Assembly: GCA_011375345.1 (NCBI GenBank)
Contig: DRLM01000124.1
Span: forward strand, 1 to 32,158
Source of the DNA: Gammaproteobacteria bacterium
GTDB lineage: Bacteria; Pseudomonadota; Gammaproteobacteria; DRLM01
DNA: 32,158 nucleotides
Direction of reading: 5' to 3'
Shown: positions 3,374 to 10,847 of the stretch, one piece after another
How positions within the stretch are numbered: the stretch's first letter is position 1
Layout of the letters: the number at the start of each line of letters is the position of its first letter
The notes under the pieces: generated by a model
What the model was told of the DNA's origin: nothing
The model's input: only the letters and a program-made list of their open reading frames with translations
Databases searched by the model: none
Program-made: the position numbers and the translations under genes

Positions 3374-3637
3374 ATGATCACCGCCGCCCAAATCCGTGCC
3401 GCCCGGGGCTTGCTGGGGATGGACCAGCGCGCCCTGGCCGGGGCCGCCGGCCTGTCTTTGCCCACTGTCCAGCGCATGGAGGCCAGTGACGGTGTGGTGC
3501 GGGGGAATGTGGATTCCCTGGTCAAGGTGGTGGAGGCGCTGGAGCGGGCCGGGGTGGAGCTGATCGCGGAGGGGGCGGTCAGTGCCGGGGGCGGCCGCGG
3601 GGTGCGGCTGAAGTCGCCGGGCGGGTCTGGCCAGTGA
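3374..3637 (+). CDS. Small XRE-family helix-turn-helix regulator
   Basis: This 87-residue protein is a stand-alone XRE/Cro-type DNA-binding protein. The HTH spans about residues 3-60 (AAQIRAARGLLGMDQRALAG, then the recognition segment LSLPTVQRME), followed by a helix VKVVEALERAGVELI, as is common in compact single-domain regulators. The ATG at 3374 has no strong Shine-Dalgarno sequence, only a weak gtga a few bases upstream. Its stop overlaps the GTG start of the hyfB-like gene (3634-3637), so the two are probably translationally coupled, and the protein is likely a dedicated, possibly autoregulatory, controller of the following complex. An inverted repeat at 3330-3345 is a candidate operator. 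The family call is good; the target and signal are unknown. The C-terminal tail (about residues 68-87) is rich in Gly and may be disordered. Confidence 0.85.
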   Translation: MITAAQIRAARGLLGMDQRALAGAAGLSLPTVQRMEASDGVVRGNVDSLVKVVEALERAGVELIAEGAVSAGGGRGVRLKSPGGSGQ

Positions 3638-5643
3638 GCGCTTTTTCTCCATTGGGGCTGGCCGCGGTGGCGGTGGTTCTGGCGCTGTTGTCGGCGCTGG
3701 TGGCCTTGTTCGCATCGTTTTATCCCCGCTTGCTGCGTGTGTTCAGCGCGCCCTTGTTTGCCCTGGCGGGGCTGGCGGCCGTGATGGGCGGGGGCTGGGC
3801 GCTGCTGCACGGTGGCGTGGCGCGGGCGGAGGTGGCGCTGGGGCTGCCCTGGCTGCCCTGGCAGTGGCGGCTGGATGCCTTGTCCGGCTTTTTCCTTTGT
3901 GTCATTGGCGTGGTGGGCGCGGCCGTGGGGCTGTACGCACCGGGCTACCTGCGGGGTTTTGAGCATGGCCGCGAGTCCTTGCCGGTGCTGGGCGGTTTCA
4001 GCGGCCTGTTTCTGGTGGGCATGATGGGGGTGGTGCTGGCCGACGATGCCTTTTCGTTCATGATCGCCTGGGAGCTGATGTCCCTGTCCTCCTATTTTCT
4101 GGTGGCTTTTCATCATGATAACGCCGCCAACCGGCGCGCGGCTTTCTTGTATCTGCTCATGGCGCATCTCGCGGGTCTGGCCATTTTGCTGGGTTTCGGG
4201 GTGCTGGCCGGTTTCGGCCACGGTTTTGCCTTCGATGCCCTGCGCGGCGCGGAGCTGTCCTTCGGCTGGGCCAGCGTGGTCTTTGCGCTGGCCCTGGCCG
4301 GCTTCGGTATGAAGGCGGGCTTGGTGCCGCTGCACGCCTGGTTGCCTGAGGCCCATCCGGTGGCGCCGTCGCACATCTCGGCGCTGATGTCGGGAGTGAT
4401 GTTGAAGGTGGCGGTGTACGGCTTTATCCGGGTGGTGTTCGATCTCATCGGCCAGTTCCACTGGCAGTGGGGCGTGGTGGTGCTCGTCGTTGGCAGCGTC
4501 TCGGCCCTGCTGGGGGTTTTGTATGCCCTGATGCAGCACGACCTCAAACGTCTGCTGGCCTATCACTCGGTGGAAAACATCGGGATCATCTTCATCGGCC
4601 TGGGGCTGGCCCTTTTGTTTCTGGCCGAGGGGCATGCGGTGGTGGGGACCGTGGCCTTTGTCGCCGCCCTCTATCACACCATCAACCACGCGCTGTTCAA
4701 GGGGCTGTTGTTCCTTGGCGCCGGTGCCATCCTGCACAGCGCCAATGAGCGTGATCTGGAAAAAATGGGCGGTCTGCTGCGGCGCATGCCCTGGACCGGG
4801 CTGTTTTTCCTCATCGGCTGCATCGCCATCGCGGCGTTGCCGCCCTTCAACGGTTTCGTTTCGGAATGGCTCACTTTTCAGGCGGCGCTGCAGGCCTGGC
4901 AACTGGACAGTGGCGTGCTGCGTTCCCTGGTGCCCGTCGCCGCGGCCATGCTGGCCCTGACCGGCGCCCTGGCGGCGGCCTGTTTCGTTAAAGTCTACGG
5001 CGTGGCCTTTCTGGGCCAGGCCCGCAGCCGGGCTGTGCGCCGCGCCCGGCCGGTGCCCCGCAGCATGCGGGCGGGCCAGGGGGTGCTGGCGCTGGGTTGT
5101 CTGGTGCTGGGGGTGTTGCCCACGGCCTTCGTGGAGGTGTTCGACGCCGTGCCCAAGCAAGTCCTGGGCCACGGCCTGCAACAGGCCACGGCCCACGGCT
5201 GGTTGTGGCTGACGCCGGTGTCACCGCAGACCGCCAGCTACGGTGCGCCCCTGGTGGCGCTGACCTTGTTCGTGGTGCTGGGGCTGGGGCTGTGGCTGCT
5301 CGGCCGCGGCATCCGCCGGGTGCGCCGCTGCGATGCCTGGGACTGCGGCTTCGCTCCGCCCACGCCCCGCATGCAATACACCGCCAGCGCGTTTGCCCAG
5401 CCCATCCGGCGGGTGTTCGGGCTGTTGTTTCAGGTGGACGAGGGGGTGGAGGTTCGGGAGGACGGCCGCTTGCGCCACCGTCTGCAGGTGGGCGACCGCT
5501 TTTGGGGGCTGCTTTATCTGCCCGTGGCGCGGGCCGTGGAACGGGCGGCGCGGCAGGTGGTGCGCCTGCAATCGGGCCATGTGCGCATTTATCTGGCTTG
5601 GACGCTGGGAACCCTGCTGGTGCTGCTGTGGCTGATGGCATGA
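3634..5643 (+). CDS. hyfB: HyfB-like proton-translocating antiporter subunit of an Ehr-type complex
   Basis: This is a 669-residue multi-pass membrane protein of the NuoL/M/N-MrpA/D family, closest in kind to hydrogenase-4 subunit B. It would form an ion-pumping half-channel in the cytoplasmic membrane. Hallmark charged residues are visible: E147 in the helix FMIAWELMSLSSYF, K227 in GFGMKAGLVPLHAWLPEAH, and K258 in ISALMSGVMLK. The C-terminal part (after about 480) includes the extended region with further hydrophobic helices typical of HyfB proteins. The GTG start at 3634 overlaps the xre stop, and the stop overlaps the next gene (ATGA at 5640-5643). It could alternatively be called an NADH dehydrogenase-like antiporter subunit, but the following HyfC, HyfE, HyfF, HyfG and HyfI homologues support the hydrogenase-4/Ehr type. 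The family is certain; the pumped ion is not. Confidence 0.92.
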   Translation: MSAFSPLGLAAVAVVLALLSALVALFASFYPRLLRVFSAPLFALAGLAAVMGGGWALLHGGVARAEVALGLPWLPWQWRLDALSGFFLCVIGVVGAAVGLYAPGYLRGFEHGRESLPVLGGFSGLFLVGMMGVVLADDAFSFMIAWELMSLSSYFLVAFHHDNAANRRAAFLYLLMAHLAGLAILLGFGVLAGFGHGFAFDALRGAELSFGWASVVFALALAGFGMKAGLVPLHAWLPEAHPVAPSHISALMSGVMLKVAVYGFIRVVFDLIGQFHWQWGVVVLVVGSVSALLGVLYALMQHDLKRLLAYHSVENIGIIFIGLGLALLFLAEGHAVVGTVAFVAALYHTINHALFKGLLFLGAGAILHSANERDLEKMGGLLRRMPWTGLFFLIGCIAIAALPPFNGFVSEWLTFQAALQAWQLDSGVLRSLVPVAAAMLALTGALAAACFVKVYGVAFLGQARSRAVRRARPVPRSMRAGQGVLALGCLVLGVLPTAFVEVFDAVPKQVLGHGLQQATAHGWLWLTPVSPQTASYGAPLVALTLFVVLGLGLWLLGRGIRRVRRCDAWDCGFAPPTPRMQYTASAFAQPIRRVFGLLFQVDEGVEVREDGRLRHRLQVGDRFWGLLYLPVARAVERAARQVVRLQSGHVRIYLAWTLGTLLVLLWLMA

Positions 5644-10331: not shown

Positions 10332-10340
10332 GGAACGGCC

Positions 10341-10847
10341 ATGCTCAACATCCTCAAACACATCCGCCGCAGCGGCACGGTGACGGAAGCACCGCCGCGG
10401 GACAGCGAACTCGCCGCTCCAGGGGCTGAAATCAAGCGCCACATTGACCGGCGCTTTCAGGGCAGCCTGGCCATCCGCCAGGTGGACGCCGGTTCCTGCA
10501 ACGCCTGTGAGCTGGAGATCCACGCCCTGAACAACCCCTACCACGACATCGAGCGCTTCGGCGTGCATTTCGTCGCTTCGCCCCGCCACGCCGACGCCCT
10601 GCTGGTGACCGGGCCGGTGTCGCGCCACATGGAAACGGCCCTGCGCCGCACCTGGATGGCCACCCCGGCGCCCAAGTTTGTCATTGCCGCCGGGGACTGC
10701 GCCTGCCACGGTGGCGAGTTCGGCGCCTGCTATGCCTGCCTGGGCGCGGTGGAGCAGGTCATTCCGGTGGACGTCAAAATCCCCGGCTGCCCTCCCAGCC
10801 CGCGCCAGTTGCTGCTCGGCATATTGGCCGCCCTCAGGGCGGGGTGA
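10341..10847 (+). CDS. hyfI: HyfI-like small subunit (NuoB family) with intact [4Fe-4S] ligands
   Basis: This 168-residue protein is the NuoB/HycG-type small subunit that carries the terminal [4Fe-4S] cluster, equivalent to N2 of complex I. All four expected ligands are visible: the pair in AGSCNACELEI, the cysteine in AAGDCACHGG, and the one in KIPGCPPSP. So an electron path up to the large subunit is retained although the [NiFe] site is lost. The ATG at 10341 follows an AAGGA ribosome site and lies 9 bases after hyfG, the only junction of the operon without an overlap. Its stop overlaps the GTG of tadA (10844-10847). The N-terminal 40 residues, including GSLAIRQVDAGSC, match hydrogenase-type rather than complex I NuoB proteins. 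The assignment is strong. Confidence 0.92.
   Translation: MLNILKHIRRSGTVTEAPPRDSELAAPGAEIKRHIDRRFQGSLAIRQVDAGSCNACELEIHALNNPYHDIERFGVHFVASPRHADALLVTGPVSRHMETALRRTWMATPAPKFVIAAGDCACHGGEFGACYACLGAVEQVIPVDVKIPGCPPSPRQLLLGILAALRAG

What the first reader, a model, noticed from the sequence alone, without database searches (positions are those of the whole stretch)
3634..10847. Six-subunit hydrogenase-4-like complex whose large subunit has lost the [NiFe] ligands
The membrane and hydrophilic subunits match group 4 hydrogenases, and the small subunit keeps all four Fe-S cysteines. The large subunit reads RVSGDS where RxCGxC is expected (residues 231-236) and DFPVCNKS at the C-terminal motif (512-519). 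That matches the published idea of energy-converting hydrogenase-related (Ehr) complexes, which are conserved yet have no assigned reaction. An Fe-S path that ends at an emptied active site suggests a different redox partner, such as a quinone as in complex I, or a purely coupling role.
Basis: partly seen in the sequence, partly recalled or inferred. Interest (0 to 1): 0.8.

Follow-up and report, generated by a model that had tools for sequence, protein, structure and literature searches.

The report
Hydrogenase-like pump without its metal site
This bacterial gene cluster encodes six proteins built like a hydrogen-producing enzyme complex but without the four cysteines that hold its nickel-iron centre, so it is predicted not to handle hydrogen and likely moves ions instead; close relatives of the regulator gene in front of it stand mostly in front of this complex or of an anion transporter, which gives a testable clue to a job that is still unknown.

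Summary
hyfBCEFGI (3634-10847) is one operon, and its large subunit lacks all four [NiFe] cysteines. Correction: the C-terminal ligand motif aligns to residues 521-526 (NGSYSG), not DFPVCNKS (512-519). The complex is of the already described Ehr (hydrogenase-related) kind. In my tree 64 such large subunits (60 with none, 4 with one of the four cysteines) lie on one side of a 99/99 branch; grouping the window protein with 13 intact group 4a enzymes is rejected (p-AU 8e-7). It is not decaying: dN/dS is 0.14-0.25. The complex I quinone residues (identities recalled) are replaced, so 'quinone as in complex I' is not supported. Beyond the finding: an XRE regulator gene overlaps hyfB. Of 52 close copies of that regulator in two genome surveys, 25 stand directly before hyfB, 20 before a SulP anion transporter, 7 before neither. 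A palindromic motif (TGATG-N7-CATCA) learned from the SulP cases is enriched before the Ehr cases; the window carries it once (one mismatch), at 3319-3335. SulP also stands next to hyfB in methanotrophs. Best reading: an ion-translocating non-hydrogenase, likely in one programme with SulP anion (perhaps bicarbonate) transport. Reaction and substrate remain unshown.

The parts
3319..3335 (+). Predicted operator TGATATAAAATGCATCA (consensus TGATG-N7-CATCA, one mismatch)
   Evidence: Only match with at most 1 mismatch in the 32158-base window, where 0.79 are expected by chance, so its place and not its count is the evidence; motif learned from SulP-side regulators and enriched before Ehr-side ones
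3374..3637 (+). XRE-type HTH regulator, 87 aa; its TGA stop overlaps the GTG start of hyfB (GTGA)
   Evidence: Pfam HTH_3 just over cut-off; sequence read; only match in the host genome at E 0.01; it or a relative stands directly before hyfB in 28 of 92 loci with upstream sequence, the window included
3634..5643 (+). hyfB, NuoL/antiporter-like membrane subunit
   Evidence: NCBIfam hydrogenase 4 subunit B over cut-off, E=3e-251; charged residues conserved
5640..6593 (+). hyfC, NuoH-like membrane subunit
   Evidence: Pfam NADHdh E=4.6e-37; 9 acidic residues conserved in 99-100 of 100
6590..7276 (+). hyfE membrane subunit
   Evidence: NCBIfam hydrogenase 4 membrane subunit, E=1.3e-24 but below the model's cut-off
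7273..8745 (+). hyfF, second antiporter-like membrane subunit
   Evidence: NCBIfam hydrogenase 4 subunit F over cut-off, E=1.9e-214
8742..10331 (+). hyfG, fused NuoC/NuoD-like large subunit (529 aa) without [NiFe] ligands
   Evidence: AlphaFold2 model mean pLDDT 90, best PDB match E. coli HycE
9432..9449 (+). RVSGDS (residues 231-236) in place of RxCGxC
   Evidence: alignment to HycE; S233 and D235 116 of 116
10302..10319 (+). NGSYSG (residues 521-526) in place of DPCxxC; the protein ends three residues later
   Evidence: alignment to HycE; S523, Y524 and G526 116 of 116
10341..10847 (+). hyfI, NuoB-like small subunit with one complete set of four Fe-S cysteines
   Evidence: Pfam Oxidored_q6; C53, C56, C120, C150 94 of 94

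Best explanation
The operon HTH-hyfBCEFGI encodes an Ehr-type complex without any of the four [NiFe]-binding cysteines, which therefore likely does not react with hydrogen and is predicted to be a redox-driven ion-translocating membrane machine under its own XRE regulator, likely in the same anion-supply programme as SulP transporters. SHOWN by sequence: the missing ligands, the missing C-terminal tail, the single Fe-S cysteine set, conserved membrane-arm charges, the overlapping regulator gene, and the two-way (hyfB or SulP) company that close relatives of this regulator keep. INFERRED: electrons from an unidentified soluble donor reach the single cluster of HyfI and a substrate at the remodelled HyfG site; the conformational change drives H+ or Na+ through HyfC/HyfE/HyfB/HyfF as in complex I; the gradient or the chemistry supports anion import, perhaps bicarbonate, if the host is an autotroph as its two RuBisCO-family genes suggest. 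UNTESTED: any activity, the ion, the donor, the substrate, and binding of the regulator to the predicted operator.
For: Ligands absent and replacements conserved. 113 of 117 family members end in DL, at the place where the tail of hydrogenases would begin. 64 Ehr rows on one side of a 99/99 branch; window plus 13 group 4a rows as a clade rejected, p-AU 8.2e-7, motif columns removed. Purifying selection on hyfG: dN/dS 0.138-0.25 in 11 of 12 pairs (the twelfth pair was identical). Membrane arm: HyfB E141, K221, K299, K350 and E405 98 of 98 (numbered from codon 3652), HyfF E133 and K345 109 of 109. HTH and Ehr co-occur: 13 of 17 HTH genomes, the host among them, are among the 44 Ehr genomes of 369 (2.0 expected, hypergeometric P 2.9e-10). 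Of 52 HTH copies of at least 60% identity in the class and phylum surveys, 25 lie directly before hyfB, 20 before SulP (matches start 0-261 bases on), 7 before neither (4 of the 7 lie near an Ehr operon). SulP-derived motif in Ehr upstreams: mean best score 8.8, shuffled -0.35, highest of 100 shuffled means 0.56. SulP directly before hyfB in 10 Methylococcales loci, once with a 4-base overlap, and between hyfF and hyfG in an eleventh. Host has two genes over the RuBisCO_large cut-off.
Against: No activity is shown for any Ehr in the passages I read. The SulP link is by gene company only; the SulP family carries sulfate, dicarboxylates or other anions as well as bicarbonate (recalled), and NCBIfam puts none of the seven tested SulP over the BicA cut-off. 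No SulP was found in the window's own genome at E 1e-10, an empty answer without a positive control. 26 of 44 Ehr-side upstreams lack the operator at one mismatch or fewer, and none of 11 tested SulP upstreams in SulP-Ehr or nearby loci carries it within one mismatch. A shared operator in front of homologous regulators can be plain autoregulation. 64 of 92 Ehr loci have no such HTH next to hyfB. None of five weaker HTH copies (47-55% identity) stands directly before hyfB or SulP.
Confidence: 0.45

Rival explanations
1. The complex is the membrane half of a formate-oxidising system (FDH-Ehr): a formate dehydrogenase would hand electrons to HyfI and the complex would pump ions.
For: Proposed for Riflemargulisbacteria and Saganbacteria (PMC6349859, passages); Ehr subunits more abundant on formate than in hydrogen-containing conditions in Geobacter sulfurreducens (PMC7894505, passages); HyfBCEFGI of Desulfobacterium autotrophicum was assigned with FdhABCD to a formate hydrogenlyase by its authors (PMC2702500, passage).
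Against: No formate dehydrogenase gene among the eight proteins scanned here and none that I recognised among the recurrent neighbour clusters, which were not all annotated; the ferredoxin-like HyfA and HyfH of E. coli, which would link the two (role recalled), have no counterpart in the operon. The host genome was not searched for formate dehydrogenase.
Confidence: 0.18
2. It is a quinone reductase that works like the NuoD/NuoH site of complex I.
Against: The quinone head-group His and Tyr (identities recalled) are I185 and G234, 116 of 116 each, while the host NuoD and E. coli NuoCD keep them. Loop 179-191 has pLDDT under 50 and no coordinates were at hand, so the pocket was not inspected.
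Confidence: 0.12
3. It is a proton-motive-force-driven CO2-hydrating or bicarbonate-importing machine, analogous to DAB2 or to cyanobacterial NDH-1MS, with no redox reaction.
For: Shared company with SulP; host has RuBisCO-family genes; DAB2 is a precedent for a NuoL-like subunit coupled to CO2 hydration (PMC13144422, abstract and passages).
Against: No DabA- or CupA-like family among the eight proteins scanned; I see no new set of metal-binding residues in place of the lost ligands (C245, C284 and C516 are not universal); the conserved Fe-S cysteines would have no use.
Confidence: 0.15
4. It is a decaying hydrogenase remnant.
For: PMC13194489 (passages) calls the Geobacter Ehr nonfunctional and expects drift there.
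Against: dN/dS 0.138-0.25 in 11 pairs, 161 of 529 positions conserved in at least 98% of 116 relatives, intact overlapping genes with a regulator gene.
Confidence: 0.02
5. It is still a hydrogenase with unusual ligands (Ser, Asp or the three near-conserved cysteines).
For: C245, C284 and C516 are 114-116 of 116 in the close family; the host has hypD and genes that read as hypA and hypB, so a NiFe site could be made.
Against: Those cysteines are not kept across the wider family, and the tail behind the motif is absent.
Confidence: 0.02

Closest known systems
Ehr, energy-converting (Ech) hydrogenase-related complexes (PMC6349859, PMC10284858, PMC4378227, PMC10432482, PMC12342949, PMC7894505; passages)
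   Same: Group 4-like subunit set, no [NiFe] ligands, no tested function; my clade includes Geobacteraceae and Nitrospirota loci, groups in which Ehr is reported
   Different: The papers' own sequences were not retrieved here; the XRE gene and the SulP link were in none of the passages I read
hyfBCEFGI of Cupriavidus metallidurans CH34 (Rmet_4666-4671) and C. necator H16 (H16_A2196-A2201) (PMC2864759), and of Acidithiobacillus ferrooxidans (PMC7735108); passages
   Same: The same six genes by name; the A. ferrooxidans catalytic subunit was classified as non-hydrogenase by its authors
   Different: Sequences not compared here
E. coli HycE/HyfG (group 4a, formate hydrogenlyase)
   Different: Has all four cysteines and a 32-residue tail, and the E. 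coli hyf cluster has HyfA, HyfD and HyfH as well
Respiratory complex I (NuoD/NuoB/NuoH/NuoL)
   Same: Shared families and folds
   Different: No NADH module in the operon; quinone residues replaced; the host has a separate NuoD on contig C137
DAB2 CO2-hydrating complex (PMC13144422)
   Same: Uses a NuoL-like proton-conducting subunit
   Different: No DabA-like protein in this operon; DAB2 as described has two subunits, DabA2 and DabB2

Membership tests
Ehr (hydrogenase-related) complex | Large subunit lacks the cysteines that bind Ni and Fe | tested here: met
   S233, S236, S523, G526
Ehr (hydrogenase-related) complex | Group 4-type membrane and hydrophilic subunits in one operon | tested here: met
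Ehr (hydrogenase-related) complex | Groups with published Ehr sequences apart from hydrogenases | tested here: inconclusive
   One side of a 99/99 branch against 13 group 4a rows, MbhL and two NuoD rows; Geobacteraceae and Nitrospirota loci are in the clade, but no published Ehr sequence such as GSU0739-45 was retrieved
Ehr (hydrogenase-related) complex | No hydrogenase activity | not testable with these tools
   needs enzyme assays
Group 4a [NiFe] hydrogenase | RxCGxC and DPCxxC ligand motifs | tested here: not met
Group 4a [NiFe] hydrogenase | C-terminal tail beyond the second motif (removed at maturation, recalled) | tested here: not met
   tail 0 here; 31-32 residues in all 13 group 4a rows
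Group 4a [NiFe] hydrogenase | Placement inside the clade | tested here: not met
   p-AU 8.2e-7 against it
Respiratory complex I | Quinone head-group His and Tyr in the 49 kDa subunit (identities recalled) | tested here: not met
   I185 and G234 at the positions of H and Y in NuoD_own and NuoCD_Ecoli
Respiratory complex I | NADH dehydrogenase module in the operon | tested here: not met
   No NuoEFG-like family among the eight proteins scanned
DAB / NDH-1MS CO2 uptake complex | DabA- or CupA-like CO2-hydrating subunit | tested here: not met
   No such family among the eight proteins scanned; the rest of the genome was not searched for it

The most novel reading that the evidence does not exclude
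Ehr complexes of this clade are the complex-I-like arm of an inorganic-anion (bicarbonate) supply regulon: one small XRE regulator family and one palindromic operator control either a SulP importer or an Ehr ion pump, which can stand in for each other, much as cyanobacteria put a SulP bicarbonate importer and NDH-1MS under low-CO2 control (recalled).
Probability: 0.27. Interest if true: 0.85.

Novelty: new member of a known kind. Interest (0 to 1): 0.6.

Why it matters
Ehr complexes are widespread (44 of 369 genomes sampled from the host's class at E 1e-60, the host included), and papers from 2014 to 2026 that I read in part still say that the function is unknown or call the complex nonfunctional. 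The regulator-operator-SulP link names a concrete condition to test: anion or inorganic-carbon supply. It would show how a complex I relative can lose its catalytic metal and be kept for another use. Growth and assays of single-operon deletions in non-pathogenic laboratory strains would settle much of it.

Tried and rejected
Hydrogenase reading: rejected (ligands, tail, tree). Complex-I-type quinone site: residues replaced, but the pocket was not inspected, because no coordinates were at hand and loop 179-191 is of low confidence. A new metal site from C245, C284 and C516: rejected, they vary in the wider family. A conserved ferredoxin, formate dehydrogenase or carbonic anhydrase neighbour: none that I recognised among the recurrent neighbours; neighbours were clustered and read by eye, only nine were run against NCBIfam. 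The first neighbour clustering used the longest ORFs and mixed in antisense frames; replaced by codon-usage calling. The tree held wrong-strand rows and that one wrong-frame row (L188); both replaced, from which L171, L184 and L188 were left out; the Ehr rows of all trees are a hand-picked part of the homologues found. Operator search upstream of SulP in 11 SulP-Ehr or nearby loci: nothing within one mismatch. SulP in the host genome: none at E 1e-10. Paper searches: the XRE-SulP-Ehr link was not seen in their listings or in the 13 papers that I read by passages only.
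Full report
OBSERVATION. The window carries hyfB (3634-5643), hyfC (5640-6593), hyfE (6590-7276), hyfF (7273-8745), hyfG (8742-10331) and hyfI (10341-10847) on one strand, with 4-base overlaps from hyfB to hyfG at the starts chosen here; tadA (10844-11335) overlaps hyfI. HyfG (529 aa) matches E. coli HycE best among solved chains (E 5e-58). Aligned to HycE, RVCGIC becomes RVSGDS (231-236) and DPCYSC becomes NGSYSG (521-526): the four ligand positions are S233, S236, S523 and G526. 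HycE, HyfG and an Azospirillum group 4a enzyme run 32 residues past the aligned end; the window protein stops there, and 113 of 117 family members end in DL.

NOT CHANCE, NOT DECAY. Of 120 listed homologues, 116 of full length were aligned: none has a cysteine at the four positions; S233, D235, S523, Y524 and G526 are 116 of 116 and position 236 is S/T/A; 161 of 529 positions are at least 98% conserved. hyfG dN/dS is 0.138-0.25 in 11 of 12 close pairs; the twelfth pair was identical. This speaks against the view in PMC13194489 (passages) that the Geobacter Ehr is nonfunctional, as far as those Ehr belong to this family.

HOST. One hyfG and one NuoD were found (NuoD on contig C137), hypD by Pfam with ORFs that read as hypA and hypB beside it, and two genes over the RuBisCO_large cut-off (that family also holds RuBisCO-like proteins, as its hit in the Bacillus subtilis control shows). 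So the host likely matures [NiFe] enzymes and is likely an autotroph; hydrogenase structural genes were not searched for. Only 1 of the 6 genomes searched in its family (the host itself) has the complex at E 1e-40, against 44 of 369 in its class at E 1e-60: a patchy, perhaps mobile trait. In the plasmid collection 85 of 72,556 records hold a relative at E 1e-40.

WHAT IS LEFT OF A MECHANISM. HyfI has one cluster's worth of cysteines (C53, C56, C120, C150; 94 of 94). HyfB, HyfF, HyfC and HyfE keep several acidic and basic residues in 98-100% of relatives, which in complex I relatives belong to proton paths (established knowledge of the family; no structural mapping was done). HyfA, HyfD and HyfH of E. 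coli have no counterpart in the operon, so no second Fe-S subunit is encoded there. The positions of complex I's quinone-binding His and Tyr (recalled) are I185 and G234. Hence I think of a single-cluster, ion-translocating complex with an unknown donor and substrate; that step is inference.

REGULATOR. An 87-residue XRE protein (3374-3637) ends inside the first codons of hyfB (GTGA overlap). It is the only match found in the host. Among 92 related loci with at least 300 bases upstream of hyfB (the window included), 28 carry it or a relative (62% identical or more) directly before hyfB; no locus had one elsewhere only. The named strain Rhizobium johnstonii 3841 has a helix-turn-helix gene overlapping hyfB on pRL11. 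In 369 genomes of the class, 17 have the regulator (E 1e-14); 13 of these are among the 44 Ehr genomes (2.0 expected; P 2.9e-10). Of the other four, one (G211) has HTH-hyfBCEF on a contig that ends inside hyfF, and three (G040, G097, G369), in which P0001 found only weak NuoD-like matches, have the regulator directly before a SulP-family anion transporter.

SECOND SURVEY. In 398 genomes of the phylum, 32 have the regulator. Taking copies of at least 60% identity from both surveys (52, the window's included; five weaker copies, 47-55% identical, were left out, none of them directly before hyfB or SulP), 25 stand directly before hyfB, 20 directly before SulP and 7 before neither; 4 of those 7 are extra copies near an Ehr operon and 3 (L259, L264, L275) stand elsewhere ('directly' means that the protein match on the same strand begins within 500 bases; all 45 begin within 261). 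One genome (G466) has both HTH-Ehr and HTH-SulP. Separately, SulP is the gene directly before hyfB in 10 Methylococcales loci (4-base overlap in L016) and lies between hyfF and hyfG in L037; it is nearby in L015, L018 and L024. The SulP proteins are of more than one subtype. NCBIfam scores the general sulP model over its cut-off for four of the seven scanned and none over the BicA cut-off. Against solved chains a methanotroph SulP (L036) is nearest to 6ki1 (BicA, name recalled; 1.2e-23), the SulP of L252 is nearly tied between 5da0 (SLC26Dg, name recalled) and 6ki1, and the G040 SulP is nearest to a prestin and a plant SULTR. Substrate is therefore open.

OPERATOR. From 20 SulP-side upstreams alone, a search without a preset pattern gave TGATGTATTATACATCA, a near-palindrome. 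Scanned on 44 Ehr-side upstreams it scores 8.8 on average against -0.35 in dinucleotide shuffles (highest of 100 means 0.56). At one mismatch or fewer to TGATG-N7-CATCA, a pattern that I had first seen by eye in both sets: 16 of 20 SulP-side, 18 of 44 Ehr-side and 5 of 14 others, against shuffled means of 0.28, 0.38 and 0.21. The window has the motif once, at 3319-3335 with one mismatch, ending 38 bases before the regulator's start. Homologous regulators that control themselves would show the same, so the motif supports one regulator type over both targets, not a tested regulon. Against a wider rule: none of 11 SulP upstreams in SulP-Ehr or nearby loci carries it within one mismatch.

KNOWN. 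Ehr complexes are described in PMC6349859, PMC10284858, PMC4378227, PMC7304191, PMC10432482, PMC12342949 and PMC7894505, all read by passages; none of those passages reports a tested function, and two tie Ehr to formate dehydrogenase. The six-gene hyfBCEFGI form is noted in Cupriavidus (PMC2864759), Acidithiobacillus ferrooxidans (PMC7735108), Nitrospira (PMC5596200) and Desulfobacterium (PMC2702500). The complex is thus a new member of a known kind. The XRE-operator-SulP association was not seen in the listings of searches; that is a limited search.

VERDICT. Observation right with one register correction; Ehr reading right; complex-I-type quinone role not supported by residues. The useful lead is the regulator type shared with SulP transporters, which makes a long-open function testable in harmless laboratory strains.

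Noticed in passing
window 1-2904: Large ORF that looks like a type I restriction HsdR-type helicase (my reading of the translation, no family search), upstream of the Ehr operon; it may mark a mobile or variable region.
   Followed up: no
window 24491-31542: ORFs that read as transketolase, GAPDH, phosphoglycerate kinase, pyruvate kinase and fructose-bisphosphate aldolase in a row (my reading); two RuBisCO-family genes lie elsewhere in the host.
   Followed up: partly
L034, L052, L061: A second Ehr operon or part of one lies beside the first; its large subunit lacks RVSGD and reads AGDT instead. L046 has an extra hyfI-like gene before hyfB.
   Followed up: partly
L149, L150 (genome G045) and proteins P0121-P0240: A second Ehr type with gene order C-E-F-G-I-B; 9 of 10 rows read have a cysteine one place beyond the last ligand position. 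G045 carries two such loci besides the first type.
   Followed up: partly
L057, L064, L066, L072, L086 (Bradyrhizobium) and L079 (Mesorhizobium): A second copy of the XRE gene lies near the Ehr operon, together with a spermidine-synthase-like gene (cluster c10, found in 10 loci).
   Followed up: partly
L026, L032, L036, L040 and other Methylococcales loci: Near the SulP-Ehr operon a recurrent protein (c12, 8 loci; the one tested had no NCBIfam match) and, in several loci, a histidine-kinase- and response-regulator-like pair (clusters HK9 and RR11) are found.
   Followed up: no
L134, L145, L147, L176: Four Ehr large subunits keep or regained one of the four ligand cysteines (position 236 in L134 and L176, 233 in L145 and L147), perhaps reversions or intermediate states.
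   Followed up: no
L259, L264, L275: The only three of 52 close regulator copies beside neither hyfB nor SulP nor an Ehr operon; L259 and L264 share a similar neighbour gene, and L264 and L275 have a perfect operator-like site upstream.
   Followed up: partly
window 10844-11335: tadA (tRNA adenosine deaminase) overlaps the end of hyfI, so it may be cotranscribed with the Ehr operon.
   Followed up: no
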